In this document: positions 867 through 13,645 of the stretch, piece after piece
Layout: every line of letters begins with the position of its first letter
Position numbering within the stretch: the first letter of the stretch is position 1
From: Actinomycetes bacterium
GTDB taxonomy: Bacteria; Actinomycetota; Acidimicrobiia; Acidimicrobiales; Palsa-688
NCBI GenBank assembly: GCA_021815935.1
Contig: JAKAZH010000026.1
Span: forward strand, 1 to 14,175
Direction of reading: 5' to 3'
Length of the DNA stretch: 14,175 nucleotides
The notes under the pieces: model-generated
What the model saw: the letters and a program-made list of their open reading frames with translations, nothing else
The model's database searches: none
Told to the model about the DNA's origin: nothing
Position numbers and translations under genes: made by a program

Positions 867-1946
867 GTGGCTGTCCGGATACGATCGAAGAGGTGGTTGG
901 TTGCCGCCTGTGTGGTGGTTGCCGCAGCCGTCGTCGGGGCTTTCGTCTATCGTAGCGGCGCTTCCACGTCTGGGGCTCACCACGCCAGGACCCGGCAAGC
1001 TTCGGCAGGCCTGGTGTCTAGAAGGATCCGCCACAGTGGTGCCCCGGCCTTGGTAGCCGGACGCGGCAGGGCGGGACGTCGCAAGCCGCTGCCGTTCCAT
1101 TTGAGTTCGGTCGCCCCGAGTGCAGCCCAGCTTCTCGCCGGGGCACCAACCCCTCCGCCCGGATGGACATCCGCGGTCCACACGGTCGACCAGGGCGGTT
1201 TGTTGCGGTCCTACCTGACGGTGCAGCCAAGTCATCTGTCGACTCCCGTACCCGTCGTCGTGCTCATGCACGGACGCTTCATGACCGCCGACCAGATTCT
1301 CGGATACACACGCCTGGCGTCGTCCGTCGGACCTGCGATCATCATCGCTCCTCAGGGCTACGAGCGTTCATGGAATGCGGGGGGATGCTGCGGACCGGCT
1401 TGGAAAGCCAACGTCAACGACGTGGCGCTCGTGGTCGCGGCCTTGGACTCCACGTTCGCCTCCACGCCGATGGCCGACCGCTCCCGGGTGTTCGCCGTCG
1501 GTTTCAGCAACGGGGGTCGGATGGCCTACCGGCTCGCGTGCGACATGCCCGGGGTCTTCACCGGTTTCGCCGCCGTGGAAGCCGTCCCGGTGGTGCCGTG
1601 CTCATCGATGCAGCCTGTCGACGTGACAGTAGTGGCCCAGCAGGGCGACCCGCTGCTAACGACGAAACCGGGAGCGCTGCCGAAGCGGATCGACGGAACA
1701 ACGGAGCCGACCTTGCCGGTGGAGTTGGCGCGACTGCGAGCTCTCGACGGCTGCGCATCGTCAGGGCAGGTCACCAAAGCCGGCGTCTCGGTCATCACGA
1801 CATGGTCGTGCGGGTCGGGGACGACGCTGCGTTACGTGTGGTACCCGGGCGGGCGCCACAGCTGGCGACCAAGCAGCGGAACCACCCCCGGGGCGACGCC
1901 GGTGGTTGTGGCGATGATCCGCTCCTCGCACGACCTTGTGAGTTGA
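867..1946 (+). CDS. Membrane-anchored alpha/beta hydrolase, PHB-depolymerase/feruloyl-esterase (LpqC-like) family
   Basis: This is a 359-residue secreted or membrane-anchored esterase. Residues 10-28 are a hydrophobic signal/anchor helix after a basic N-terminus, so the catalytic domain should lie outside the membrane. A basic linker leads to an alpha/beta hydrolase core: oxyanion-strand motif VVLMHGR (131-137), the family-typical Trp-Asn...Cys-Cys-Gly segment (169-176) followed by NDVALVVAALD, nucleophile elbow GFSNGG (Ser214), a probable acid Asp261 in QQGDPL, and the catalytic His331 in GGRHSW. Members hydrolyse esters such as polyhydroxyalkanoates, feruloyl esters or acetylxylan; the substrate here is unknown. 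The GTG start at 867 is supported by GAGAGG six bases upstream. The gene diverges from the Fur-family gene and ends 23 bases before the next plus-strand gene. Confidence 0.8.
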   Translation: MAVRIRSKRWLVAACVVVAAAVVGAFVYRSGASTSGAHHARTRQASAGLVSRRIRHSGAPALVAGRGRAGRRKPLPFHLSSVAPSAAQLLAGAPTPPPGWTSAVHTVDQGGLLRSYLTVQPSHLSTPVPVVVLMHGRFMTADQILGYTRLASSVGPAIIIAPQGYERSWNAGGCCGPAWKANVNDVALVVAALDSTFASTPMADRSRVFAVGFSNGGRMAYRLACDMPGVFTGFAAVEAVPVVPCSSMQPVDVTVVAQQGDPLLTTKPGALPKRIDGTTEPTLPVELARLRALDGCASSGQVTKAGVSVITTWSCGSGTTLRYVWYPGGRHSWRPSSGTTPGATPVVVAMIRSSHDLVS

Positions 1947-1969: not shown

Positions 1970-2380
1970 ATGAGCCAAGATCCGCTCGACCTCGAGCTGG
2001 CTACCACCGCGATCCTCGCCGACAACCACGACGTGAAAGGTCTCCTGGAAATGCTCGCCCGACAGCTGAGCGCCACCCTGGGCTCCAAGGTGACTGTCGA
2101 ACGTGAAGGCGGGATCCTGCGAAAGTCCAAGGAGATTCGGGCGCTGCGGGTTGCTTTCGGCGCAAAGACGTTCGTGGCCGAGATAGCCAGGGGTTCGCTT
2201 GTCACCGCGATCGCCCTCGAATCAGGTGGCATACGGATCCGCACCGACAAGGTGGAAATGGGCGACTGGCTCGCCGGGCTGCTCGCCGAGCTTCAGGTGG
2301 CGGCTTCGTCCAACCAGGCGTCACGAATGGCACTCGAACAGATCGTCAACGGGGGCCGACCGACCGGAGGAATACTATGA
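1970..2380 (+). CDS. Small uncharacterised protein leading the YbjQ-domain operon
   Basis: I do not recognise a named family for this 136-residue soluble protein. It has no signal peptide, membrane helix or cysteine. The visible pattern is an N-terminal helical region (about residues 8-37, ELATTAILADNHDVKGLLEMLARQLSATLG), a central basic/acidic segment rich in likely beta strands (KVTVEREGGILRKSKEIRALRVAFGAKTFVAEIARGSLVTAIALESGGIRIRTDKVEM), and a C-terminal helix (about 97-125). This suggests a compact alpha/beta fold. The reading frame is open well upstream, but inside the hydrolase gene; ATG 1970 is the first start after that gene. Its stop overlaps the next start by ATGA, so it is translationally coupled to the first YbjQ-type gene. 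An accessory or partner role for those proteins is inference from context. Confidence 0.75.
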   Translation: MSQDPLDLELATTAILADNHDVKGLLEMLARQLSATLGSKVTVEREGGILRKSKEIRALRVAFGAKTFVAEIARGSLVTAIALESGGIRIRTDKVEMGDWLAGLLAELQVAASSNQASRMALEQIVNGGRPTGGIL

Positions 2381-3201
2381 GCGACCCCAACCTGCCGGCC
2401 AACCTGCCGGCCAACCTGCCAGCTGACCTGCCACGCGACGCAGGCAAACGTCTCGCCGAGCTAAAAAACCTGTTCACCTCCGATCTGTCGGTCAACGAGT
2501 TCCTGCTCATCAAGCAGGCCGGGTTTCACCCGCTCGGCCTCGTGATGGGATCGTCGATCTACCACACAGGCATACAGACCCGAAAGTGGAGCAAGTCCCA
2601 GGAGCTGACCAAGCTGACCGAGGCGATGTACAACGCCCGAGAGCTCGCGATGACCAGGATGGAAGAGGAAGCCGAGCAACTCGACGCGGACGGCGTTGTA
2701 GGAGTGCGGCTCGACGTCAACTACTACGAGTGGGGCAACGACGCGGCCGAGTTCATCGCAGTCGGCACTGCCGTCAAAGCCGAAAACGGTGTCTCACATC
2801 GCACCAAGCACGGAAAACCGTTCACGTCCGACCTCTCCGGGCAGGATTTCTGGACCTTGATGCAGACGGGCTACGTGCCACATGGGCTCGTCATGGGAAC
2901 GTGCGTCTACCACATAGCGCATCGGGGCCTCGTGCAAACCCTCGGTTCGGTAGGCCAGAACGTCGAGTTGCCGAACTTCACTCAAGCCTTGTACGAGGCG
3001 AGAGAGTTGGCGATGACGCGGATGCAGGAGGAAGCTGAGCGGCTCGGCTCTACCGGGATCGTGGGTGTGCGCCTGGAGGAGAAAAGCCACCAGTGGGGGA
3101 GCCACACGATCGAGTTCCTCTCGATAGGCACCGCGGTCGGCGACACTGGTAGAGCCGTCACGCTTCCTCAGCCGATCACCGTCATTTCTCTGGACAACTG
3201 A
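2377..3201 (+). CDS. Tandem YbjQ-like (UPF0145, heavy-metal-binding-type) protein 1
   Basis: The 274-residue protein has two YbjQ-type domains (PF01906) at about residues 32-134 and 148-255. Each begins with the same block (FTSDLSVNEF / FTSDLSGQDF), continues with GLVMGSSIYH / GLVMGTCVYH and a helix NARELAMTRMEEEAE / EARELAMTRMQEEAE, then GVVGVRLDV / GIVGVRLEE and a closing EFIAVGTAV / EFLSIGTAV. The family is small, soluble and forms oligomers; it was named a putative heavy-metal-binding domain, but its function is not established. The N-terminus holds a short LPANLPANLPADLP repeat. GGAGG six bases before the ATG gives a strong ribosome site, and the ATGA overlap couples it to the preceding gene. 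No membrane segment is seen, so it should be cytoplasmic. Confidence 0.85.
   Translation: MSDPNLPANLPANLPADLPRDAGKRLAELKNLFTSDLSVNEFLLIKQAGFHPLGLVMGSSIYHTGIQTRKWSKSQELTKLTEAMYNARELAMTRMEEEAEQLDADGVVGVRLDVNYYEWGNDAAEFIAVGTAVKAENGVSHRTKHGKPFTSDLSGQDFWTLMQTGYVPHGLVMGTCVYHIAHRGLVQTLGSVGQNVELPNFTQALYEARELAMTRMQEEAERLGSTGIVGVRLEEKSHQWGSHTIEFLSIGTAVGDTGRAVTLPQPITVISLDN
2389..2433 (+). repeat. 12-bp tandem repeat inside the coding sequence
   Basis: AACCTGCCGGCC occurs twice exactly (2389-2400, 2401-2412), followed by a diverged third copy (2413-2424) and a partial fourth (2425-2433). It encodes (N/D)LPA repeats at residues 5-19 of the first tandem-YbjQ protein. Its 12-base period keeps frame, so copy number could vary without breaking the gene. 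Confidence 0.85.
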
Positions 3202-4328
3202 TGGCCGATTCGGGCTTACCGGGCGACGTACCGCCAAACGACCAGCACAGCCAGATTCCCGGCGAGGTGAGCGAAAGCGGCTACGAGGGCGACCTGCCCC
3301 CCGAAGCTGCGGAGCGGTTGTCGAGCTCCGCATGGTCGTCCGGCTTGAGCGTGAACGACTTCGCAGCCTGTCGCAGCATGGGCCTGCGGCCGGTAGCGCT
3401 GGTGCAGGGGTTCTGCGTGATGGGTTGGTCGTGGTACGGATCGGGATCGCCGTATATGTACCGGCCGGCGTATGGGCCGGCGATGGGCGGAGGCATTGGC
3501 GGTGGCTTCGCTGGGATGGGTGGGCGCCTGCCGGGCACCGTCGGAGGGGGATTCGGCGGACCGTTCTCGGGGAACACTCAGGGTGGCGGAGGCTACGGTG
3601 CCGCCAGCGGGTCGGGATCCGGTGCCGGCGCCTACGGACGTAGCCGCTGGGGTTCGACGATCAGCTCCTATAACTGCCCGCATTACTACGCTGGCATGGA
3701 CCATCGAAGTTTCGGGGAGAACTTCGAGCAGCGCTGGGTGTCGGACGTGTGGTCGCAAGGATTCAACACTGCGTTCGCCCGAATGATCGAGGAGGCCGCG
3801 GCCGCTGGAGCCCACGGCGTTGTCGGCGTGGTCGACACCGTTTCGAGTCTGATCGACAGGTCTATCAGGGAGTTCCACGTCTACGGCACGGCCGTCGCAG
3901 TCGAGGGAGCGCCTCGCCCGCCCTCCATATGGTCGACGTATCTGGCCGGCCAGAGGCTCGCCAAGCTGGTCGAGGCCGGATTCATGCCGACCTCGGTGGT
4001 CGCTTCAATAGCCTCGGTTCGGGTGTGGGCCGTCTGTGTCACCCAGGCGCTCATGGCCGGCGGCTACCAGACCGGCGGCTGGAGCGCTCCGACAGGCGAG
4101 ATTACACAGGTGTCCGACGCCCAGATGCAGGTTCGCCGTCTCGTGCGGGACCACGTCAAGTCGCAGATCGGCGCGGACACTCTCCACGGCGCCGACCTGG
4201 CGGTAGCGTGGCGCGACATCGGGGAGGGCGATTACGAGCTGCAAGCAGTTCTTCGAGGCACGAGGGTCCGCCGGGCCAGGCAAGCGGATCCGCTCCCGCC
4301 GCCCAAGCTGACTGTGCGTCTGGGATGA
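3201..4328 (+). CDS. Tandem YbjQ-like protein 2 with a glycine-rich insertion
   Basis: This 375-residue paralogue also has two YbjQ-type units. The first starts at SSGLSVNDFAACRSMGLRPVALVQGF (about residues 46-71) and resumes at FNTAFARMIEEAAAAGAHGVVGVVDTV (189-215) and EFHVYGTAVAV. Between these halves lies an insertion of roughly 90 residues: an aromatic patch (WSWYGSGSPYMYRPAYGPAM, about 76-95), a Gly-rich stretch (96-146) and NCPHYYAG. The second unit (about 243-356) is the most diverged of the set; it keeps LAKLVEAGFMPTSVVAS and LHGADLAVAWRDI but has lost most signature residues. A proline-rich tail ends the protein. The ATG shares one base with the previous stop (TGATG) and has no Shine-Dalgarno, so it depends on translational coupling. 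The low-complexity insert is probably flexible and may contact a surface or partner; this is inference. Confidence 0.8.
   Translation: MADSGLPGDVPPNDQHSQIPGEVSESGYEGDLPPEAAERLSSSAWSSGLSVNDFAACRSMGLRPVALVQGFCVMGWSWYGSGSPYMYRPAYGPAMGGGIGGGFAGMGGRLPGTVGGGFGGPFSGNTQGGGGYGAASGSGSGAGAYGRSRWGSTISSYNCPHYYAGMDHRSFGENFEQRWVSDVWSQGFNTAFARMIEEAAAAGAHGVVGVVDTVSSLIDRSIREFHVYGTAVAVEGAPRPPSIWSTYLAGQRLAKLVEAGFMPTSVVASIASVRVWAVCVTQALMAGGYQTGGWSAPTGEITQVSDAQMQVRRLVRDHVKSQIGADTLHGADLAVAWRDIGEGDYELQAVLRGTRVRRARQADPLPPPKLTVRLG
3475..3645 (+). other. Glycine-rich low-complexity insert region
   Basis: Residues about 92-146 of the second tandem-YbjQ protein are dominated by Gly, Ser and Ala (GGGIGGGFAGMGG, GGGFGG, GGGGYG, SGSGSGAG). 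The insert sits between the first strand pair and the central helix of a YbjQ unit, where the paralogues have only a short loop. The DNA is locally GGC/GGT/GGA-rich but not an exact tandem repeat. Confidence 0.8.
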
Positions 4329-5176
4329 GCTCGTCCAGCGACGGCCCTCAACCTGCGGAGAGCATCCGGGAGAAGGTTGCGCACTTGGCCGCAGGCGGGT
4401 ACCTCGAGCATTCGGGTGGCCGCCGGGGAGCCACCTCGGACCTGACTATCGACGAGACACTTGTCCTGCATTCAGTGGGCTGGGAACCGGTCGAGCTCGT
4501 CTGCGGTGCAAGTTCGTTCTCGATACCGGCGGGAGTGTGGCTTTGGAACCAGGGGGAGATCACATCGGCGTCGTATGCCTACACTGGCGCCCTTGCGCGG
4601 GCGGTGGCGTCGCTTCAGGGGGAATGCCGGGCTGTCGGTGGCCACGGTATCGTCGGCGTCCACCTCGACGTGGCTGTCGAGCGACACCTCGTCAACGTCG
4701 TGATGGTCGGATCGGCGGTGGCGCCAACGGATGGGAGCAGGCCGCTTGGGCAGCAGTTCGCGTCCGACCTCTCCGGGCGAGATTTCGCACTGCTTCACCT
4801 GGGAGGTTGGGACCCTATCGGCCTTGCGTATGGTGCGGCATTCGTAAATGCCCCGAGGCGCAGCGTTTCAGTTGCGATGAGGCAGAGCTCGCAGAACGTC
4901 GAACTGACCAACTACACCGAGGCTCTCTACGCTGCGCGCGAGTCGGCGATGGAGAGGATGCAGTCGATGGCCGGAGGCCTTTCAGGGCAAGGGGTGGTAG
5001 GCGTGAGGGTCTCCGAGGGCACGGTCGGCTTTGCGCGCCACGCGATCCGCTTTGCAGCATGGGGAACCGTCATCCGTCGCTCCGGGCGCCCCGACCGCCT
5101 TGGAGAACCTTCGATGGTCGTCCCTCTGCGAGACGAGTTGACGGCGTTTGAAGCTGCTGCTCTCCGCGGAGGCTAA
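4325..5176 (+). CDS. Tandem YbjQ-like protein 3
   Basis: The 283-residue protein holds two YbjQ-type domains at about residues 37-134 and 144-250. The second is clearly the counterpart of the second domain of tandem protein 1: both share ASDLSGRDF / TSDLSGQDF, SQNVELTNYTEALYAARESAMERMQ / GQNVELPNFTQALYEARELAMTRMQ, and GVVGVRVSE / GIVGVRLEE. The first domain is more diverged (TSDLTIDETLVLHSVGWEPVELVCGASSF, GIVGVHLDV, VNVVMVGSAVA). ATG 4325 is chosen because it gives an ATGA overlap with the preceding gene; the frame is open further upstream, but only inside that gene. It ends the four-gene run, and 126 bases without a convincing gene follow. The shared features imply duplication of an already two-domain ancestor, then divergence. 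Function is unknown. Confidence 0.85.
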   Translation: MSSSSDGPQPAESIREKVAHLAAGGYLEHSGGRRGATSDLTIDETLVLHSVGWEPVELVCGASSFSIPAGVWLWNQGEITSASYAYTGALARAVASLQGECRAVGGHGIVGVHLDVAVERHLVNVVMVGSAVAPTDGSRPLGQQFASDLSGRDFALLHLGGWDPIGLAYGAAFVNAPRRSVSVAMRQSSQNVELTNYTEALYAARESAMERMQSMAGGLSGQGVVGVRVSEGTVGFARHAIRFAAWGTVIRRSGRPDRLGEPSMVVPLRDELTAFEAAALRGG

Positions 5177-5302: not shown

Positions 5303-6187
5303 ATGCAGATATCGGGCGGCTTCGAGGGGCAGGACTTCGTCGAGATCGCCGATCTCCTAGCGCGGCGGCGATGCAGCGGCCGACTGGCTGTTCGCGCAGG
5401 AGGCCTCCGCGGGTCGGTTCGAATAGTCGACGGAGACGCCGTCTCGGCGGAGGCGTCAGGTAGCGCGCTTAGCACCGCGCGATCCACGTGGCAGGTAACT
5501 TTGGAGTACATCCTCTTCGAGGTACTTCAGGCTGACTACGGGACGTTTGATTATCAGCCCGACGAAGGTACACTTCTCGCGCCGGGTCCGCGGGTGACCT
5601 TCAAGGAGTCGTTTGATGGGGCGCGGCTGCGCCTCGAAGCGTGGCGTAAGGTTGAGAAGGTGATCCGCAGCTTCGAGGCTGTCCCTCGACTAGCGGATTC
5701 GCTTCCAGGCGAAATCACGGTTAGCAGCGAAAGCTGGTCCGTGCTCGTGGCCTTGGACGGACGGCGGACAGTAGCGGGGCTCGCGAAAAGGTTGAACCGC
5801 GACATCCTCGAGCTTTGTGAAGTTCTGGATCCTCTGGTGAGGGGAGGAGCGGTGACCGTGGATCAATCCGAGGCACCCTCGAAGTCCCTTCCGAAAGTTC
5901 GTTTGCAATGCAGTCTCGGCGAGGCGTCACCAGCTGCCGACGACGACGAGGGCCTCGTGAGCGTTACCCGCGGTGGTTTCGCTCTCGGCCTGGCTCGGCC
6001 GAGCGCGCCGATTGCGATGCTGGTCAGTGTCGATCCTCAGGTCGAGACACTGCCTCCGCTGGAAGGGACCGCCGGAGACGACATGTCGCCCGATTTTGCG
6101 CAAGACCCCGACGGTGGCCATCGCATCACGCGTAGGCTCGGCCTTCGGGGGCGCAGTCCGCTATTGAAAGGCGCCAGCGGGGAATGA
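5303..6187 (+). CDS. DUF4388 (PATAN) domain protein
   Basis: This 294-residue soluble protein opens with a DUF4388/PATAN domain (about residues 4-115): FEGQDFVEIADLLARRRCSGRLAVRAGG, then GSVRIVDGDAVSAEA and a helix leading to YGTFDYQPDEGT, the usual order of this domain. DUF4388 proteins are typically found with two-component, chemotaxis-like or GTPase signalling modules in bacteria. A second region (about 138-188, WSVLVALDGRRTVAGLAKRLNRDILELCEVLDPLVRGGAV) looks like a winged helix, as often follows DUF4388. The remaining C-terminus is acidic/polar and probably disordered. The ATG at 5303 is close behind an in-frame stop at 5294, so the start is fixed to within one or two codons; the ribosome site is weak. 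The next gene starts 16 bases after its stop, so they form an operon. Confidence 0.75.
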   Translation: MQISGGFEGQDFVEIADLLARRRCSGRLAVRAGGLRGSVRIVDGDAVSAEASGSALSTARSTWQVTLEYILFEVLQADYGTFDYQPDEGTLLAPGPRVTFKESFDGARLRLEAWRKVEKVIRSFEAVPRLADSLPGEITVSSESWSVLVALDGRRTVAGLAKRLNRDILELCEVLDPLVRGGAVTVDQSEAPSKSLPKVRLQCSLGEASPAADDDEGLVSVTRGGFALGLARPSAPIAMLVSVDPQVETLPPLEGTAGDDMSPDFAQDPDGGHRITRRLGLRGRSPLLKGASGE

Positions 6188-6203
6188 AATCGAGGTCGCT
6201 GCA

Positions 6204-7214
6204 GTGGCGCTGATCATCCCGCTTGGACTGATCGCGCTGCTAGCGGGAGCGGCTGGCTGGGGAATCACGCCGGGTCGTCGGGACGGTCGATCGATCAGGA
6301 CGCACAAGCAGACGGTCGGAACGATCGAGCGGATCGTAGGTAGCGTCGACTCCGAGGCCGGGGATGCGTCGAATCATGTCCGGCTCGTGGACGATCAAAA
6401 GGAGATCCCGACAAGCTCTGGACCCGCTCCGAACGCTGAGCTCGCTGGAGGCGCGCAGGTCGGGCAAAGCGCGGGCGACGGGGGAGGAGCGGACGTAGGG
6501 TTCAGCCCAGGAAGGGGGCCGAGGCCCAACGCTCGGCTAAAAGAAAGCGAGGGGGATCCCGCAGCCCCGAAGCACAAGGCGCGAGTCGCGTCACCGCTCG
6601 CGCCGCTGCACCTGAGGCGCTCGAATCGTTGGGGCGCCGTGCCACCGGCCGCCGCCGGGGTAGCAGTCCTAGTCGCGGCGATAGTAGTGGCTGTCGGTGT
6701 CGCCCGGTCACGTTCGCCTCAACCGACCGGGAAGCTTCCCGCGACGGCGATCGACCGTCCTGGGGCAGCGTCGGGGAGCTCGGGCGCAAACCAACCGAGC
6801 CGGTCCGGCGCCGCTAAGCCGGGGTCCGGCAACTCGGGATCTGGCCGCTCCGCCGGCGCTGGGTCTTCGGTGTCGAGCAACGTGACGGCCTCCACGACGA
6901 CACTACCGGCAGTCAGCGCCGCAACCTCAACCGCGTCCGGCTATCAATACGACGTGGCCGCCAAGGTTGTGTCGGCGACGCTCACGATGACCGGCGCGTG
7001 CTGGCTGGCAGTTCGGGATGGTTCCGCGGCTGGTCCGACTCTCTTCGAGGCAACCCTCAGCGCCGGGACGGTCAAGACTTTCACCTCCTCGGGGGCCGGA
7101 TTGTGGCTCCGGATCGGAGCGCCCGGGGCGGCCCGGCTGCAACTATCAGGGGAGAACGTGGCGCTTCCGCCAGGCGGACCTTACGACATCACCGTGACAT
7201 CCGCGTCCGGCTAG
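6204..7214 (+). CDS. Membrane protein with C-terminal RodZ-type DUF4115 domain
   Basis: The 336-residue protein has a hydrophobic N-terminal segment (residues 2-19), a polar, probably disordered region, a second membrane helix (about 146-167), a Ser/Gly/Ala/Thr-rich linker (170-246) and a C-terminal beta domain (about 250-333). That last domain fits the RodZ C-terminal DUF4115 pattern: CWLAVRDGSAAGPTLFEATLSAGTVKTF, then GLWLRIGAPGAARLQLSGENV and PGGPYDITV. In RodZ this domain is extracellular, and the cytoplasmic helix-turn-helix binds MreB. No helix-turn-helix is seen here, so this is not a full RodZ. The GTG start has GAGG eight bases upstream and lies 16 bases after the DUF4388 gene, suggesting the two products work together across the membrane (inferred). 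Confidence 0.7.
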   Translation: MALIIPLGLIALLAGAAGWGITPGRRDGRSIRTHKQTVGTIERIVGSVDSEAGDASNHVRLVDDQKEIPTSSGPAPNAELAGGAQVGQSAGDGGGADVGFSPGRGPRPNARLKESEGDPAAPKHKARVASPLAPLHLRRSNRWGAVPPAAAGVAVLVAAIVVAVGVARSRSPQPTGKLPATAIDRPGAASGSSGANQPSRSGAAKPGSGNSGSGRSAGAGSSVSSNVTASTTTLPAVSAATSTASGYQYDVAAKVVSATLTMTGACWLAVRDGSAAGPTLFEATLSAGTVKTFTSSGAGLWLRIGAPGAARLQLSGENVALPPGGPYDITVTSASG

Positions 7215-7223
7215 CCCGCGGCT

Positions 7224-7247
7224 AGCCCCGGCGGGACCCTCGGGGCT
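7224..7247 (+). terminator. Stem-loop after the DUF4388/RodZ-like pair
   Basis: AGCCCCG (7224-7230) and CGGGGCT (7241-7247) make a perfect 7-bp stem with a 10-base loop, starting ten bases after the stop codon. Only a weak T-run (ATTT) follows, so termination efficiency is uncertain. The more AT-rich stretch after it (about 7280-7345) probably holds the promoter of the next gene, but no clear hexamer pair stands out. Confidence 0.45.
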
Positions 7248-7359
7248 GCATTTCGGAGGTTCCCAGAGCGAAGGCTTCGTGCTTATACACCATAATGCCC
7301 TTTTAGTAACTACTTGCCCGAATTAAGGTCTATGTAGAACATGGCCGAATCTGAATAGT

Positions 7360-9048
7360 GTGGATCTGACAGTCGCCTCACTTGAAGTCGCTGCGTTGCA
7401 GGACGGGCATTCCAATCAGCACCCAGCCGAGCTGAACTGGGTCGAACTGGCCCTCTTCGAGCTTCTCGAACTTGAGCCTGCCTCCCGGATCTCCGCCCTG
7501 GGTGGCGAGGTTCCCCCTCGGGTCGTGGAGCTCCCGGCAGGATTAATTCTCGAGGCTTCCCGTGGTAGCCGGGCGGAAACCCCACTGCTGACGGTGATAG
7601 CACCGTCAGATCAGGCGGCGGTCGTCCGGGCTTGGTGGAGAGCGCGCACGAACGGGATGGCGAGTGCCGTCGTGCACCTACATGCGGATGCTGACAAGAC
7701 CAAGGTTGTGCACCTCTTCGACCTACGAGACCGTCACGGCGTAGTCGTGGTGGTGCTTACAGACGATCGCCCGACCGGCTTCCGTGAAGCTGCCGACCAC
7801 ACGACACGCGTATTCGAAGGGCCCCGGCCGGTCCGCTTCGGTCGGATCGCGAAGAATGCAAGCTCTGTAATTTTAGACGTCGATAGCGGAGCCCAGACAC
7901 TCCTAGGCTGGACCTGCGAGGAGCTGGTCGGAAGGCCGACGTTGGAGCTCATACATCCCGACGACCATCCTGGTGCTATCTCGTGTTGGATGGCGATGCT
8001 CGGCGACAACGGTATGTCCAGACCTGCCCGATACCGCTACAGACACCGTGACGGGCGCTGGCTGTGGATGGAAGTGACGAACGACAACCGGCTGAGCGAT
8101 CCGCTCCACGGCGACGTCCTGTCCCATATGGTCGACGTCACCGACGAGGAACGCACGGCGCGCGACTTCCAGGTACGCCAGCAGCTGCTAGAACAGGTGA
8201 CAGAATCCTTGCCCGTAGGGGTATTCCACGCCGACCTCGACGGTTCGATCATCTACTCAAACAACAAGATGGTGGAAATGTCGGGCCTGCATCCCGGCCA
8301 ACTCATAGTCGACTGGCAAGCGAGCGTTGGGTCGGCTCACCGAAGAGAACTGGTAAAGGCTATCTCACTAGCGGCCGGCGGCCAGGAGTCAAATGCCGTC
8401 ATCGAGGTGACCGGACCTTCGTCGACGCCGACCTTTCTCTCTTTGCTCGCACGACCACTGCGAGATCGGGCAGGCGAGATCACGGGTGTCACCGGGTCGC
8501 TGTCAGATGTCAGCAGCGAAGTGCGTCGCCTTCGACAGCTCGAAGTCCGCGCTGCAACGGATTCGCTCACAGGCTGCCTCAACAGGCGAGCGATACTCGC
8601 CCGTGTCCAGGAATCACTCGACGACCTGAGTAGCCCGAGGGACGGCGGTGGCGTCGGTGTGATGTTCGTGGACGTCGACGGGATGAAAAGGATAAACGAC
8701 GAGCTAGGACATGCCACGGGGGACGCTGTTCTTGTGGAGATGGCCAACAGGCTTGGTGAGTCGCTTCGAGGCTGTGACGGCGTCGGTCGTTTCGGGGGGG
8801 ACGAATTCCTCGTTGTCGCCCCCGGACTTTGCAGCGCGTCCTATGCGCTCCTTCTTGCAAACCACGTATCATCGCGACTTTCGGCAGCTTTCGAATCCGA
8901 AGGCGTGCCGGTCGCACTCAGGGCAAGCGTCGGCGTGTCGTGGACCTCGCGCGCCTGCAGTGACGCAGGCGAGCTTGTAAACCGGGCCGACGCCGCAATG
9001 TATCAGTCCAAAAGGGAAGGTAGCGGCGAGCCGGTCCTAGCGTACTGA
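7360..9048 (+). CDS. Diguanylate cyclase with tandem PAS domains (PAS-PAS-GGDEF)
   Basis: This 562-residue cytoplasmic protein should make cyclic di-GMP from two GTP. An N-terminal region (1-150) has no clear identity, perhaps a degenerate PAS. PAS 1 spans about 160-265 (SVILDVDSGAQTLLGWTCEELVGRPTLELIHPDDH, then RHRDGRWLWMEV and a PAC-like MVDVTDEERTARD). PAS 2 spans about 275-388 (ESLPVGVFHADLDGSIIYSNNKMVEMSGL). The GGDEF domain (395-558) has DSLTGCLNRRA, DVDGMKRINDELGHATGD, the intact GGDEF motif at 479-483 and an RxxD inhibitory site (Arg470-Asp473) five residues before it, so it is predicted active and product-inhibited. There is no EAL domain and no membrane helix, so sensing is presumably of a cytosolic signal. 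GTG 7360 is the first start after an in-frame stop (7324); no Shine-Dalgarno is visible. Confidence 0.9.
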   Translation: MDLTVASLEVAALQDGHSNQHPAELNWVELALFELLELEPASRISALGGEVPPRVVELPAGLILEASRGSRAETPLLTVIAPSDQAAVVRAWWRARTNGMASAVVHLHADADKTKVVHLFDLRDRHGVVVVVLTDDRPTGFREAADHTTRVFEGPRPVRFGRIAKNASSVILDVDSGAQTLLGWTCEELVGRPTLELIHPDDHPGAISCWMAMLGDNGMSRPARYRYRHRDGRWLWMEVTNDNRLSDPLHGDVLSHMVDVTDEERTARDFQVRQQLLEQVTESLPVGVFHADLDGSIIYSNNKMVEMSGLHPGQLIVDWQASVGSAHRRELVKAISLAAGGQESNAVIEVTGPSSTPTFLSLLARPLRDRAGEITGVTGSLSDVSSEVRRLRQLEVRAATDSLTGCLNRRAILARVQESLDDLSSPRDGGGVGVMFVDVDGMKRINDELGHATGDAVLVEMANRLGESLRGCDGVGRFGGDEFLVVAPGLCSASYALLLANHVSSRLSAAFESEGVPVALRASVGVSWTSRACSDAGELVNRADAAMYQSKREGSGEPVLAY

Positions 9049-9328: not shown

Positions 9329-12300
9329 TCAGGGCCGGTTCGAGGAAACATCCCCAGACGGCATGAGGAACCGGCCGACCAGCGGCAGTTCCCAGAACGA
9401 CTCGGCCCGAGCGATTGCCACCGCAACGTCTAGAAGATGTTCGGGGGAATCGTAGATGGCATATCGCGCGAGCCAGTCAGGGTCGAACTTGGCGTTGAAC
9501 TTCCAGAGGGACTCGATCTGCATCGACCCTCCCATCCGTTTGAGCGTCCAAGCCTGGACGCGCGCTGTGAGACCGTCACCGGCCTCGCCAGCTAGAACCG
9601 CCCGCATCGTAGCGAAGTTGAGGCCGAGGCCTTTCATGCCTCGTGATCGCAACTCCCGGATCGTCTCGACAACCGCAAAGTCGATGAGGCCGTTCGGGTG
9701 CTCGCCGTCGTCGCGGCGCATCAGATCCAGCGAGTAGCCGTCGATGCCGGGTGCCGGCACGAACTGGCAGAAGGCGACCGGCGGACCGGGCATCCCGTCG
9801 TCGCTCGGAGCGCGTACGACCGCCATGAGAAGGCCTCGATCCTCCGATTCGAAAACCCGCCCGAGGGTCATCGAGAAGCCGCGTTCGACGTCACCCCTTC
9901 GGGACTTGGTCATGACCATCGCCAGACCGCTGCGCAGTTGGGGATCCAGGTCTCCGGGATCGTGGAAGCTGATGGCGTAGCCGTACTTTGCCACGCGGTT
10001 GACGGCCTGCCTCAAGCTTTTGTGTCGCCCCCCTTCGAGGCTGAAGCGGTCAACGGCGACCACGGCTTCGTCGCCGACGTAAAGCTCCCGCATTCCGGTT
10101 GCACGGTAGATCGCCAGCCACTCTTCGCCTGCGCCGAGACCACCGAGAGTCCACCCCTGTCGATCGACGTAGCGGCGGAACTGCCGCCACGCTTCCTCTC
10201 GCTCCGCAAGGGGCCCCACAGGGTCCGGCGACACGAGACAGACGGAACCGTAGACGGCGTGGGCGACGACGGTGTCGCCCCAGAAGAAGAAGCTCTTGTC
10301 GGAGCGAAGGGCGAAGTAGTCGAGGGTGCCCGAGCCGTGGCGGGCGACTACCTCCCTGGCCCACGCAAGCCCGGCGTCCCCGGGGACTGCGACGCCGTCC
10401 CTGGCGGCAGCGCCGGCGCCAGGCGCTGAGAGCGAGCCTGAAACGTTCCGTGAGGTCGGTGCCCGAAACCGGCGCGACAGCCGGCTGCGTGCCCCTCTAA
10501 TCCGCCCAGCAGCAGACTCGCCCGAGGTGTCGTGGAACATCGGGATTATGCCGCCCCTTCGCGCCACGACAGGTCTGAATGTCACGACGAGCAGGGCGAT
10601 CAGAAGCCCCACCGATGCTGTCACGATCGTCGGGAACAGGAAAGTCTCGATTCGCGGCGGTAGCGTCACCGCCGAGCTTCCCACCATCCTTGCGAGCGCC
10701 GCCTCGAAGGCTTTCGTCCAAGACACCCGAACGATGCGATGGTTGCGGGCGTGGTCGATTGCCGTGGAGATCTCCACCGCAAGTGTGCCGGCAACGACGA
10801 CGAGCACGGCCGCAACGCTCACGGAAGCGACGCCGCGACCGGCTGCGAGCACGTCGGAACGCGCTCTGAACGAATCCCGGTACAGGTACAGGATCGCCGC
10901 CGAAGCGAGCGCCCCGGAGACTTCGCCGACGTCGATCCCCTTGACGAGGTGCAAGACCGCTACCGTGACGAGCAGAACTTCGCAGACGACCCAGGCTCTG
11001 CGCTGGCCGCGCCGGACGCTCCGGGCGACGACTATAAGGCCGACACCGAGAAAGGCCGCCCCGGCCGCCGCGACCTGTGGCACGATCAGCGGGAACAGGG
11101 TGCGTATGAAGCTGAGCCTGTCGGCTGCCGGGTCCGACATAGCCGAAAGCAGCGAGCCGAAGCCGACCGCCATGAGCAGGAGCGCCGCCAGCCTTCGCAC
11201 CCGCCGGTCTCGACGTTCGCCGGAGCGCAGCGCTGGCCACGATTCCCCCTCGGGATAGCACGAAACGGCCCGGGGCGCCCGCTCGTCGTTCGCTGCCCGG
11301 TCGAATCGATCGGCGACGAGCCGTTCGAGGAGCGCCGATCCAGGCATGTCTTGACTGGCGTGCATCAAGCGCACGACCGGATCGCCCTCACCGGCTGCCG
11401 TCTCCACCCAGGAGGCGACGGCGCTGCCGAGAAAAGCGGGCGGAAGGCCTAGCCCGGGAAGCCGGCTCGGATACGGCGAAACAACCTCTGCGACTGCACC
11501 GGCGTTGGCGTAGAAGCCGGGACCTAGGTTCGTGAGCTCCGCGCGGCACGTGTGGCCGGTAACAAGACCCCAGTAGCCTTCGCCTACGAGGGCGCGAGCT
11601 GCCGATCTAGCGCGAAGGTTGGGATCGTGGCCAGACGATCCGGGTTCGTCCTCGATGGCCAGAGCCCCCATCGCGTGGTTCGTCGCTCGGATGGCTGCGA
11701 TCGCCGCGCCGACCAGTAGGAGCAGCTCGACGAAGATCGCGAGGACGAACAGACCGAAGCGATTCGTGATGCCGCCGTGGCGTGCGGAGTAAAGCGCTGC
11801 GGCGGGGATGCGCAGGGCGAGCGCCGCTACTAAAGCCGCGACTATCAGCCAGCTGGCGTGGATGAGACGTCTATACACGAGGCGCGAGACCACGAACCGT
11901 GCGAGTGAGCCGGCGTCGTCTAGGTGCTCGACGCCGTCGAGCCATCCTGTCCTGGCGCTAGAGGATGTTGCACGGCGCCGCCCGCGCTGCGCTCGTGACC
12001 GCAAGGCTGGCACGACCTGACTGCGGATGTGGCTCGAGTAGGGCGAGTCAAGTCGGTTGCGCGGGTCTGTTGCTGCGCTCAGGGGATCGAATGACTGTCC
12101 CGGCTCGACTCGCACCTTTCTTATCCCGTCAGGTCCTGCGATATGCAGGTCAGCCGCGAGGGCAGTCTCGGCGCCGGTACGCGAACGTAGGATCTGGCGG
12201 TCGGTCGAGCTGGCTGCGAGCCTGGTGTCTCTGTCTCCCGGCAGCACGAGCACCCGACGTCCCGGGCCGGCTGCGTAGCAGGCCAGCGAGTCGCTGAACT

Positions 12301-12508
12301 CGGGGTAGGCCTCTAGGGTTTGAGCGATCTCGCAGCCCGAATCGAACATGTTGCCCGCGATCACGACGACGCCAGGTCTGGTCGAGCTTTCGATCGACCG
12401 TGCTACTTCGAGTATCGCCGCAGCGTGCCGGTTGGTTGGCCGCGGGTTCAGATGCAGGTCAGCGAATACTCTGACCTGCCCGTCGCAGGGTACGTCGACA
12501 TCGACCAT
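9329..12508 (-). CDS. Fusion: LpxH-like phosphoesterase module, membrane domain, lysyl-phosphatidylglycerol synthase
   Basis: A 1059-residue membrane protein, numbered from ATG 12508. The C-terminal domain (about 715-1045) is a cytoplasmic aminoacyl-tRNA:phosphatidylglycerol transferase (DUF2156, MprF/LysX type), with CLVSPDPVGP (757-766), GAGEEWL (792-798), RFSLEGGRHKSLRQAVNR and KFNAKFDP. This class uses lysyl-tRNA to add lysine to phosphatidylglycerol, lowering surface negative charge and raising resistance to cationic peptides. Before it lie about six helices (440-646). The N-terminus is a metallophosphoesterase: FADLHL (D17, H19), AGNMFD (51-56), LPGDRD (89-94), then VTGHTCRAEL (316-325), with two helices (218-240, 251-273) inserted between. 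The motifs resemble LpxH, but the GD, GNRD and GHTH elements read GN, GDRD and GHTC, so catalysis is doubtful. An in-frame TTG at 12628 would add 40 residues but overlap the divergent gene, so 12508 is preferred. Confidence 0.8.
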   Translation of the reverse strand: MVDVDVPCDGQVRVFADLHLNPRPTNRHAAAILEVARSIESSTRPGVVVIAGNMFDSGCEIAQTLEAYPEFSDSLACYAAGPGRRVLVLPGDRDTRLAASSTDRQILRSRTGAETALAADLHIAGPDGIRKVRVEPGQSFDPLSAATDPRNRLDSPYSSHIRSQVVPALRSRAQRGRRRATSSSARTGWLDGVEHLDDAGSLARFVVSRLVYRRLIHASWLIVAALVAALALRIPAAALYSARHGGITNRFGLFVLAIFVELLLLVGAAIAAIRATNHAMGALAIEDEPGSSGHDPNLRARSAARALVGEGYWGLVTGHTCRAELTNLGPGFYANAGAVAEVVSPYPSRLPGLGLPPAFLGSAVASWVETAAGEGDPVVRLMHASQDMPGSALLERLVADRFDRAANDERAPRAVSCYPEGESWPALRSGERRDRRVRRLAALLLMAVGFGSLLSAMSDPAADRLSFIRTLFPLIVPQVAAAGAAFLGVGLIVVARSVRRGQRRAWVVCEVLLVTVAVLHLVKGIDVGEVSGALASAAILYLYRDSFRARSDVLAAGRGVASVSVAAVLVVVAGTLAVEISTAIDHARNHRIVRVSWTKAFEAALARMVGSSAVTLPPRIETFLFPTIVTASVGLLIALLVVTFRPVVARRGGIIPMFHDTSGESAAGRIRGARSRLSRRFRAPTSRNVSGSLSAPGAGAAARDGVAVPGDAGLAWAREVVARHGSGTLDYFALRSDKSFFFWGDTVVAHAVYGSVCLVSPDPVGPLAEREEAWRQFRRYVDRQGWTLGGLGAGEEWLAIYRATGMRELYVGDEAVVAVDRFSLEGGRHKSLRQAVNRVAKYGYAISFHDPGDLDPQLRSGLAMVMTKSRRGDVERGFSMTLGRVFESEDRGLLMAVVRAPSDDGMPGPPVAFCQFVPAPGIDGYSLDLMRRDDGEHPNGLIDFAVVETIRELRSRGMKGLGLNFATMRAVLAGEAGDGLTARVQAWTLKRMGGSMQIESLWKFNAKFDPDWLARYAIYDSPEHLLDVAVAIARAESFWELPLVGRFLMPSGDVSSNRP

Positions 12509-12565
12509 GTCGGGTGTGTCGTTCGCGAAGTCCAACGCGAGGCAAGATCCTACTACCGTCGGGCC

Positions 12566-13645
12566 ATGCCTGACCGCTGTCTTTGTGAAATAGGCGTGCT
12601 GTCGTCGGAAGCCGGTTGGTTGAGCCAAGACCGTTGGCTCAGGATGGCCGAGCGGCTAGGTCCGCTTGCGTACTCCCAGCTCGGAGATCGCAGTGTCCTA
12701 GCCCCGAGCCAGCTCCGGGAAGTCGCCGGTTGGCTATCTCAGAAGTTGGACGAGTGGTGGGCGCAGGACGCCAGCCCCGACCCTTGGACCGTAGTGGTCG
12801 TCTCCGGAGACGACGGATCATTGGCTCGGGCGGTCATAGACCTCGAGCCGGCCTGCTCGAAGGCGCTCAGGTATGTGGTCGTCGAATCGACAGCCGCAGA
12901 TGGCGTGGTCGCTCGGGCGCGGGTAAGTGCCAAAGTGGCCCTGGAGGAGCCGGAGACGCTCTATCCGGTCAGCGATAACCTCACCGCCGACGGTTCCCGG
13001 GCGTCTCCACCGGGACGGGGGGCGCTTGATTCCCGTGACCACGGGGAGGAGGAAGCAGCCCTCAAGCAAGGAGTCGGCCCCCTCGTGACCTGCATGCGTG
13101 ACCTCCCGGAACTCTCGAATCTGGGCGCAGGCTTCGACGGTGCTGCGAGCGGAGCAGTGGTGGCGATCGGCGTGCTCGGCGCAAAGGCTTTCGACCTGTA
13201 CGTCACCGGAGAGGTCTCCGCTGAAAATGATACGACTGGGATCGCCTCACGCGAACGTTGGATGGAGGTTCGCGTCGCGGCGACGGAAGGCGCAGCCCGT
13301 TCGCTAGGCGACATAACCGTTCCGCCCCCGCCCGGCGGGCTTCCACGCGAGCTGACCGGCGTCGACTCCACAGACGGCGACGCCGTAGTTGTGCCGGTCG
13401 GCGCTGCTCAGTGGCTCAGATACGCGCTGAGGCTCGCGCCGAAAGGTCGACTCGTCGCAGTCGAGGAATGGTCCGATGACAGCGTTCGCCTCGACGCGGA
13501 ACGGGCGACCCGGCTCGGCGGATACTGGCTGAGTCCCGGCCGGGCGGTGTCGCTTCGCGCCCTCTCGGCGGTCCGGCCGCCGGAGAGCTCTTCGGGCGTC
13601 CCCGTGGCAGGTAACCTGAGAGCGGTTACATGGAGCACAGCCTGA
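12566..13645 (+). CDS. Degenerate MidA-like (DUF185) SAM-methyltransferase homologue
   Basis: The 359-residue protein aligns by pattern with actinobacterial MidA-family class I methyltransferases (DUF185; MidA/NDUFAF7 methylates a complex I subunit in mitochondria). Visible blocks are VAGWLSQKLDEWW (53-65), PWTVVVVSGDDGSLARAV (73-90, where the Gly-rich SAM loop GAGxG should be), ALRYVVVESTAA (100-111), GPLVTCMRDLPEL (171-183), RWMEVRVA (231-238) and AAQWLRYALRLAPKGRLVAVEEW (280-302). The SAM loop reads SGDDGS, and the expected 'NELLDALP'-type segment is replaced by an unrelated stretch (AIGVLGAKAFDLY), so SAM binding and catalysis are probably lost. ATG 12566 is chosen because the open frame upstream lies antisense to the divergent phosphoesterase gene. 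The last 16 bases overlap the HAD gene. Family assignment is moderately sure; activity is not. Confidence 0.55.
   Translation: MPDRCLCEIGVLSSEAGWLSQDRWLRMAERLGPLAYSQLGDRSVLAPSQLREVAGWLSQKLDEWWAQDASPDPWTVVVVSGDDGSLARAVIDLEPACSKALRYVVVESTAADGVVARARVSAKVALEEPETLYPVSDNLTADGSRASPPGRGALDSRDHGEEEAALKQGVGPLVTCMRDLPELSNLGAGFDGAASGAVVAIGVLGAKAFDLYVTGEVSAENDTTGIASRERWMEVRVAATEGAARSLGDITVPPPPGGLPRELTGVDSTDGDAVVVPVGAAQWLRYALRLAPKGRLVAVEEWSDDSVRLDAERATRLGGYWLSPGRAVSLRALSAVRPPESSSGVPVAGNLRAVTWSTA
13611..13629 (+). promoter_or_regulatory. Inverted repeat directly abutting the HAD gene start
   Basis: GTAACC (13611-13616) and GGTTAC (13624-13629) form a perfect 6-bp inverted repeat with a 7-base loop that ends on the base before the ATG at 13630. 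In the mRNA it would fold over the ribosome-binding region (the loop carries GAGAG). It could modulate coupling between the two overlapping genes or be a protein site; chance is not excluded. Confidence 0.3.

What the first reader, a model, noticed from the sequence alone, without database searches (positions are those of the whole stretch)
1970..5176. Six YbjQ-type domains in three consecutive, overlapping genes with an unknown leading partner
Seen: three adjacent genes each encode two YbjQ (UPF0145) units, joined by ATGA, TGATG and ATGA overlaps and led by a coupled 136-residue protein of no recognised family. Known: YbjQ proteins are usually single, about 100-residue, oligomer-forming proteins of unsettled function. 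Inference: tight coupling of three diverged tandem copies suggests fixed-stoichiometry production of a hetero-oligomer, perhaps a mixed ring, with the small protein as subunit, adaptor or cargo. This is the best candidate in the window for an undescribed system.
Basis: partly seen in the sequence, partly recalled or inferred. Interest (0 to 1): 0.75.

Follow-up and report, generated by a model that had tools for sequence, protein, structure and literature searches.

The report
Conserved tandem-YbjQ module with small partner
Four tightly linked bacterial genes encode three double-unit relatives of the little-understood YbjQ proteins plus a small partner; the partner and one double protein keep turning up side by side in other bacteria, so this looks like a real protein assembly whose job is still unknown.

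Summary
Window 1970-5176 carries S (136 aa), A (274), B (375) and C (283), joined by ATGA, TGATG and ATGA. Five of the six claimed YbjQ domains are clear by profile; the sixth (second half of B) is probable.

The order S-A-B-C recurs in 13 of 14 loci found with S (the 14th ends inside S), with overlapping start and stop at 37 of 42 junctions. More widely the constant core is S plus tandem-YbjQ protein A, in several gene orders. Of 296 genomes, mostly held out, A is in 17, S in 17, both in 15, adjacent each time. The pair is also on two Streptomyces plasmids and one cyanobacterial plasmid.

S appears to be a remote relative of DUF5073 (PF16817), the family of M. tuberculosis Rv1761c, whose neighbour Rv1762c has two YbjQ-type domains. 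That link rests on intermediates.

Best explanation: a cytosolic YbjQ hetero-oligomer around A (which alone keeps invariant His and Cys), with B and C as paralogous subunits and S as dedicated partner. Linkage is shown; heteromer, stoichiometry and ligand are inferred. My paper searches found no description of the module.

The parts
1970..2380 (+). S: 136-aa leading protein; predicted helix-helix-five strands-helix-helix
   Evidence: 26 homologues; model pLDDT 83.9, pTM 0.79; no direct Pfam/NCBIfam family; remote link to PF16817
2377..3201 (+). A: 274-aa tandem-YbjQ protein, most conserved member
   Evidence: PF01906 89.3 bits, 2 stretches; at least 8000 homologues, capped
2464..2787 (+). A, YbjQ domain 1 (residues about 30-137), with His63 in GSSIYH
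2812..3144 (+). A, YbjQ domain 2 (residues about 146-256), with Cys176, His179, His243
3201..4328 (+). B: 375-aa diverged tandem-YbjQ protein
   Evidence: PF01906 27.3 bits
3327..3911 (+). B, YbjQ domain 1 (residues about 43-237), split by a Gly-rich insert
3429..3671 (+). Gly/Ser/Tyr-rich insert inside B domain 1 (residues about 77-157)
   Evidence: sequence; pLDDT under 50; length varies among relatives
3918..4277 (+). B, probable YbjQ domain 2 (residues about 240-359), most diverged
   Evidence: hhalign 92.0 to A2, 2.5 to single-domain YbjQ; model shows long helix plus hairpin
4325..5176 (+). C: 283-aa diverged tandem-YbjQ protein
   Evidence: PF01906 45.7 bits, 2 stretches
4418..4726 (+). 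C, YbjQ domain 1 (residues about 32-134)
4742..5083 (+). C, YbjQ domain 2 (residues about 140-253)
2377..2380 (+). ATGA overlap S/A
3199..3203 (+). TGATG overlap A/B
4325..4328 (+). ATGA overlap B/C

Best explanation
The four genes make one soluble, cytosolic protein assembly. A is its core: a tandem-YbjQ subunit that supplies two ring-forming domains and carries the only invariant His/Cys set, a candidate metal or ligand site. B and C arose by duplication of an already tandem gene and fill neighbouring positions in the same YbjQ oligomer; B's long Gly-rich loop projects from the ring. S is a dedicated small partner (adaptor, assembly factor or cap) made in step with A by translational coupling. 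Since known YbjQ proteins are pentamers, five tandem chains would naturally form two stacked five-membered rings, or a mixed version with B and C. SHOWN: conserved gene order and overlaps, S-A linkage across genomes, domain make-up, fixed identity of each domain position, purifying selection, A-specific His/Cys. INFERRED: physical complex, ring geometry, stoichiometry, role of S, ligand.
For: S found with a profile built only from homologues of S: 6 of 198 genomes, and each of the six has a strong A. Class sample of 296 genomes: A 17, S 17, both 15, and in all 15 S lies within 140 bases of a tandem-YbjQ match; 12 of the 15 gave no row to the S profile. Streptomyces plasmids have X-A-S (2 of 2) and a cyanobacterial plasmid S directly before A. 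Each domain class A1, A2, B1, B2, C1, C2 is a clade (support 96-100) and all first domains group apart from all second domains (support 36 and 82), as expected if fusion preceded gene duplication. His in domain 1 and Cys, His, His in domain 2 invariant in 28 of 28 aligned A-type proteins and not at those columns in B, C, X or 7 single-domain YbjQ. YbjQ structures are pentamers (PMC4092069, passages). Rv1762c, the mycobacterial tandem YbjQ, was 'consistently identified' in particles pelleted through sucrose (PMC8635971, passages).
Against: No complex was modelled or measured. A occurs without detectable S in G565 and G645 and at second loci in G141 and G004, and S lies about 40 kb from A in G021, so S is not always co-transcribed; in G571 S is on the opposite strand. 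In this group B and C evolve faster than A, which could mean relaxed roles. The first-domain clade has support of only 36. A strict text pattern for the His/Cys motifs held in 26 of 36 A-type proteins, though the aligned columns hold in 28 of 28. The Rv1762c co-purification may reflect encapsulin binding or a contaminant.
Confidence: 0.5

Rival explanations
1. S and A form the real two-protein system; B, C and X are paralogues that make their own homo-oligomers and are only co-regulated.
For: S-A or A-S without any further tandem gene occurs in G027, G612, G634, G342, G293 and G546. A is by far the most conserved.
Against: B/C overlaps conserved at 24 of 28 A/B and B/C junctions; the extra tandem gene X or B sits next to A in most S-X-A and X-A-S loci.
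Confidence: 0.25
2. The tandem-YbjQ proteins are encapsulin cargo or encapsulin-associated proteins, and S helps loading.
For: Rv1762c consistently found in M. tuberculosis nanocompartment preparations (PMC8635971, passages).
Against: Family-1 encapsulin (PF04454) is found in only 5 of 15 A-bearing genomes, absent from 10, many of them incomplete. Family-2 encapsulins were not tested. No encapsulin gene neighbour recurred among the loci (clusters).
Confidence: 0.1
3. S is a membrane protein that tethers the YbjQ assembly to the membrane.
For: Rv1761c (DUF5073) was treated as a one-helix membrane protein and solved in DPC micelles (PMC2396618, PMC6151718, PMC6269851, passages). Five DUF5073 rows have a hydrophobic stretch (19-residue Kyte-Doolittle 1.72-2.22).
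Against: The 22 other S rows reach only 0.52-1.43; the window's S is predicted alpha/beta with five strands at good confidence.
Confidence: 0.1

Closest known systems
YbjQ / UPF0145 / PF01906 single-domain proteins (PDB 1vr4, 1y2i, 2gtc)
   Same: Domain family; B domain 1 model matches 1vr4; A profile matches 2gtc, 1y2i, 1vr4 at E 2e-4 to 8e-4
   Different: Two domains per chain, up to three diverged tandem genes, dedicated partner S, A-specific His/Cys absent at those columns in 7 single-domain proteins
Rv1762c-Rv1761c pair of M. tuberculosis (tandem YbjQ plus DUF5073, PF16817)
   Same: Tandem YbjQ next to a 127-aa partner; the mycobacterial-type pair in G342, G293, G546 aligns with window A, and its partner matches PDB 2k3m (Rv1761c) at E 1.6e-54
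   Different: No B or C; partner after A rather than before; S and DUF5073 share only 16-19% identity in the joint alignment
RcsF / DUF1471 / dodecin-like folds
   Same: Same small fold group; RcsF and dodecin appear below YbjQ for B domain 1; PMC4092069 passages group YbjQ, DUF74, RcsF and DUF1471
   Different: No sequence match in the scans; different settings

Membership tests
YbjQ (PF01906) | Profile score above the curated cut-off | tested here: met
   A 89.3, B 27.3, C 45.7 bits against 23; in B only one stretch
YbjQ (PF01906) | All six halves individually YbjQ-like | tested here: inconclusive
   Five halves 83.6-98.7 against single-domain YbjQ; B2 2.5, linked only through A2 at 92.0
YbjQ (PF01906) | YbjQ fold | tested here: inconclusive
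YbjQ (PF01906) | Pentameric ring | not testable with these tools
   No complex prediction; pentamers known for single-domain members
DUF5073 (PF16817) | Window S above the Pfam cut-off | tested here: not met
   No PF16817 match for S up to E 10; so S is called a remote relative, not a member
DUF5073 (PF16817) | Homology by profile and intermediates | tested here: inconclusive
   For: S vs A8 99.8, A8 vs DUF5073 84.9, 51-row S profile vs DUF5073 91.5, bridge L146 (S profile E 3.5e-7; PF16817 30.7 bits, cut-off 27). Against: first S alignment vs DUF5073 9.7; S profile A6 does not find 2k3m
DUF5073 (PF16817) | Encoded next to tandem YbjQ | tested here: met
   G342, G293, G546 and bridge G634
Encapsulin system | Encapsulin shell gene in the same genomes | tested here: not met
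   PF04454 in 5 of 15 A-bearing genomes; family 2 not tested
Known anti-phage defence systems (PADLOC) | Profile match of any of the four proteins | tested here: not met
   Only one weak match, A to HORMA at E 0.033

The most novel reading that the evidence does not exclude
Tandem-YbjQ proteins with S define an undescribed class of large protein particle: stacked five-membered rings, perhaps higher assemblies, in which A holds a metal or ligand through its invariant His/Cys set, B-type subunits display Gly-rich loops and S is the dedicated cap or loading factor. The mycobacterial pair would belong to it, and the recovery of Rv1762c with encapsulin particles would be the particle's own sedimentation rather than cargo loading.
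Probability: 0.2. Interest if true: 0.8.

Novelty: new variant of a known kind. Interest (0 to 1): 0.6.

Why it matters
YbjQ proteins are widespread pentamers of unsettled function. A conserved partner, a recurrent two-gene core and a conserved His/Cys set give this family a concrete biochemical handle. The same reading ties together two M. tuberculosis proteins so far listed separately (one a micelle NMR structure, one an unexplained companion of encapsulin) and predicts that they act together.

Tried and rejected

Counts against the reading: A without S in G565, G645 and at second loci L065 and L076; L137 is cut by a contig end. S without A in G643 (match starts at base 3 of its contig) and weak S matches in G500, G259, G331 and G069 (E 1.5e-4 to 0.007). 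The 396-genome and 198-genome samples gave the same 11 and the same 9 genomes for A and for S once a cut of E 1e-20 for S is set after the fact, but 10 of those 11 and 8 of those 9 had supplied rows to the S profile A9, so only and the 12 new genomes are independent. The A9 profile's match to 2k3m (E 4e-23) is circular, as A9 holds DUF5073 rows.
Full report

CONSERVATION OF THE FOUR GENES. A scan of genome contigs with a profile of S alone found 14 loci; 13 hold S, A, B and C in this order and the 14th ends inside S. Over the window and these 13 loci, taking the nearest in-frame start, S/A overlap in 13 of 14, A/B in 11 of 14 and B/C in 13 of 14. Some loci are close relatives (window-L001, L002-L003, L004-L005), so these are not 14 independent events. 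dN/dS is 0.04-0.18 for S, 0.05-0.10 for A, 0.08-0.26 for B and 0.11-0.24 for C in three pairs of loci.

THE WIDER MODULE. In other actinobacteria the surroundings of A differ: S-X-A (G066, G141, G377, G395, G624, G610, G289), with S divergent from X-A in G571; X-A-S (G180, G607, G651, G697, G582, G688, G640, G581); S-A (G027); A-S (G342, G293, G546, G612, G634); A with S about 40 kb away (G021). X is another tandem-YbjQ protein with a Gly/aromatic-rich insert in its first domain, like B; B and X second domains group at support 77. Named records agree: two Streptomyces plasmids carry X-A-S and an Aulosira laxa (cyanobacterium) plasmid has S directly before A, S found there at E 3.5e-13 with a database size set to 10,000; A matched 3 of 72,556 plasmid records in all. 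In the cyanobacterium A is interrupted by a stop codon.

CO-OCCURRENCE. With the profile built only from S homologues, S is in 6 of 198 genomes of the class of L011, and each of the six also has a strong A (9 of 198 have A at E below 1e-80). With a broader S profile (A9) the sets for A and S coincide in that sample (9 and 9) and in a 396-genome phylum sample (11 and 11) if S is cut at E 1e-20, but most of those genomes had supplied rows to A9. The fairer test is a 296-genome sample of another class: A in 17, S in 17 (E up to 1e-3), both in 15; A alone in G565 and G645; S alone in G643, whose match starts at base 3 of a contig, and in G500, a weak match. In all 15 S lies within 140 bases of a tandem-YbjQ match. 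Three of the 15 (G342, G293, G546) had supplied A9 rows; 12 had not.

WHAT S IS. S has no direct family in Pfam, NCBIfam, PADLOC or PHROGs. Its model is good (pLDDT 83.9): two helices, five strands, two helices; no solved structure matches convincingly. The protein after A in G342, G293 and G546 is DUF5073 (PF16817; tested in G546, E 1.6e-64). The link from S to DUF5073 runs through intermediates: S against the S proteins of S-X-A loci 99.8; these against DUF5073 84.9; a 51-row S profile without DUF5073 against DUF5073 91.5, finding 120 of 120 DUF5073 proteins, though the best only at E 0.0016; and the S of G634, found by that profile at 3.5e-7, passes the DUF5073 cut-off (30.7 against 27 bits). 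Against it: the first S alignment compared directly gave 9.7, and its profile does not find the solved DUF5073 chain. Position beside A in both cases makes the link likely; I call S a remote relative, not a member.

THE TUBERCULOSIS PAIR. DUF5073 is the family of Rv1761c (PDB 2k3m, E 1.6e-54 to the G546 protein). A paper on M. [quoted passage not shown] Rv1762c was 'consistently identified' in nanocompartment preparations made by pelleting through 38% sucrose and a gradient (PMC8635971, passages and outline). Encapsulin itself is found in only 5 of 15 A-bearing genomes, so A does not depend on it; a large particle of its own is the alternative I favour, by inference.

HOW IT PROBABLY WORKS. 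Each of A1, A2, B1, B2, C1 and C2 is its own clade (support 96-100), and first domains group apart from second domains (36 and 82), so an ancestral tandem gene was duplicated and its copies kept distinct positions (127 sequences, 112 columns). A alone holds an invariant His in domain 1 and Cys, His and His in domain 2 (28 of 28 aligned proteins; the GxSxYH motif in 36 of 36, the full strict pattern in 26 of 36). An N-terminal LPxxAxxRL motif occurs in A (15 of 17), other A (9 of 19), B (13 of 17) and X (8 of 11), never in C (0 of 17). YbjQ proteins are pentamers (PMC4092069, passages). The economical reading is a mixed YbjQ oligomer with A as core, B and C as fixed-place paralogues and S as partner. 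The complex, its geometry and its ligand are inference.

NOVELTY. Searches of the paper library for YbjQ, DUF5073, UPF0145, Rv1761c/Rv1762c, C2CD5 with YbjQ, PF01906/DUF74/heavy metal-binding, and Rv1762c with encapsulin showed no account of such a module; I saw listings and, for eight papers, passages. No tandem-YbjQ structure appeared among solved chains. It is a new variant of a known kind: known domains in an undescribed, conserved arrangement.

Noticed in passing
L073-L075 partner proteins; PDB 2k3m: Rv1761c was solved in DPC micelles as a kinked transmembrane helix plus four helices (PMC6269851 passage), whereas its remote relatives S are predicted alpha/beta and lack a hydrophobic segment. 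The micelle fold may not be native.
   Followed up: partly
L151 4812-5567: Tandem-YbjQ gene of an Aulosira laxa plasmid is interrupted by a stop codon; S lies intact just before it.
   Followed up: partly
L004 and L005: A contig labelled Acidobacteriota carries an operon nearly identical to that of an actinomycete MAG; probably a mis-binned contig.
   Followed up: no
L076 2711-5477: A second locus in genome G004 with A-, C- and B-like genes but no S found.
   Followed up: partly
window 867-1946: An esterase-like gene ends 23 bases before S, as in L001; it is not a shared neighbour elsewhere.
   Followed up: partly
window 5303-9048: DUF4388 protein, RodZ_C-domain protein and PAS-GGDEF protein downstream; the DUF4388 gene follows the operon in L001 and L003 only among the loci clustered.
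   Followed up: partly
window 9329-12628: 1099-aa protein with a phosphatidylglycerol lysyltransferase C-terminal domain and a weak metallophosphatase match at the N-terminus.
   Followed up: no
L134 7524-9745: In G571 S is divergent from X-A instead of in line.
   Followed up: no
P0027, P0031, P0049: Some homologues of A have three YbjQ domains in one chain.
   Followed up: no
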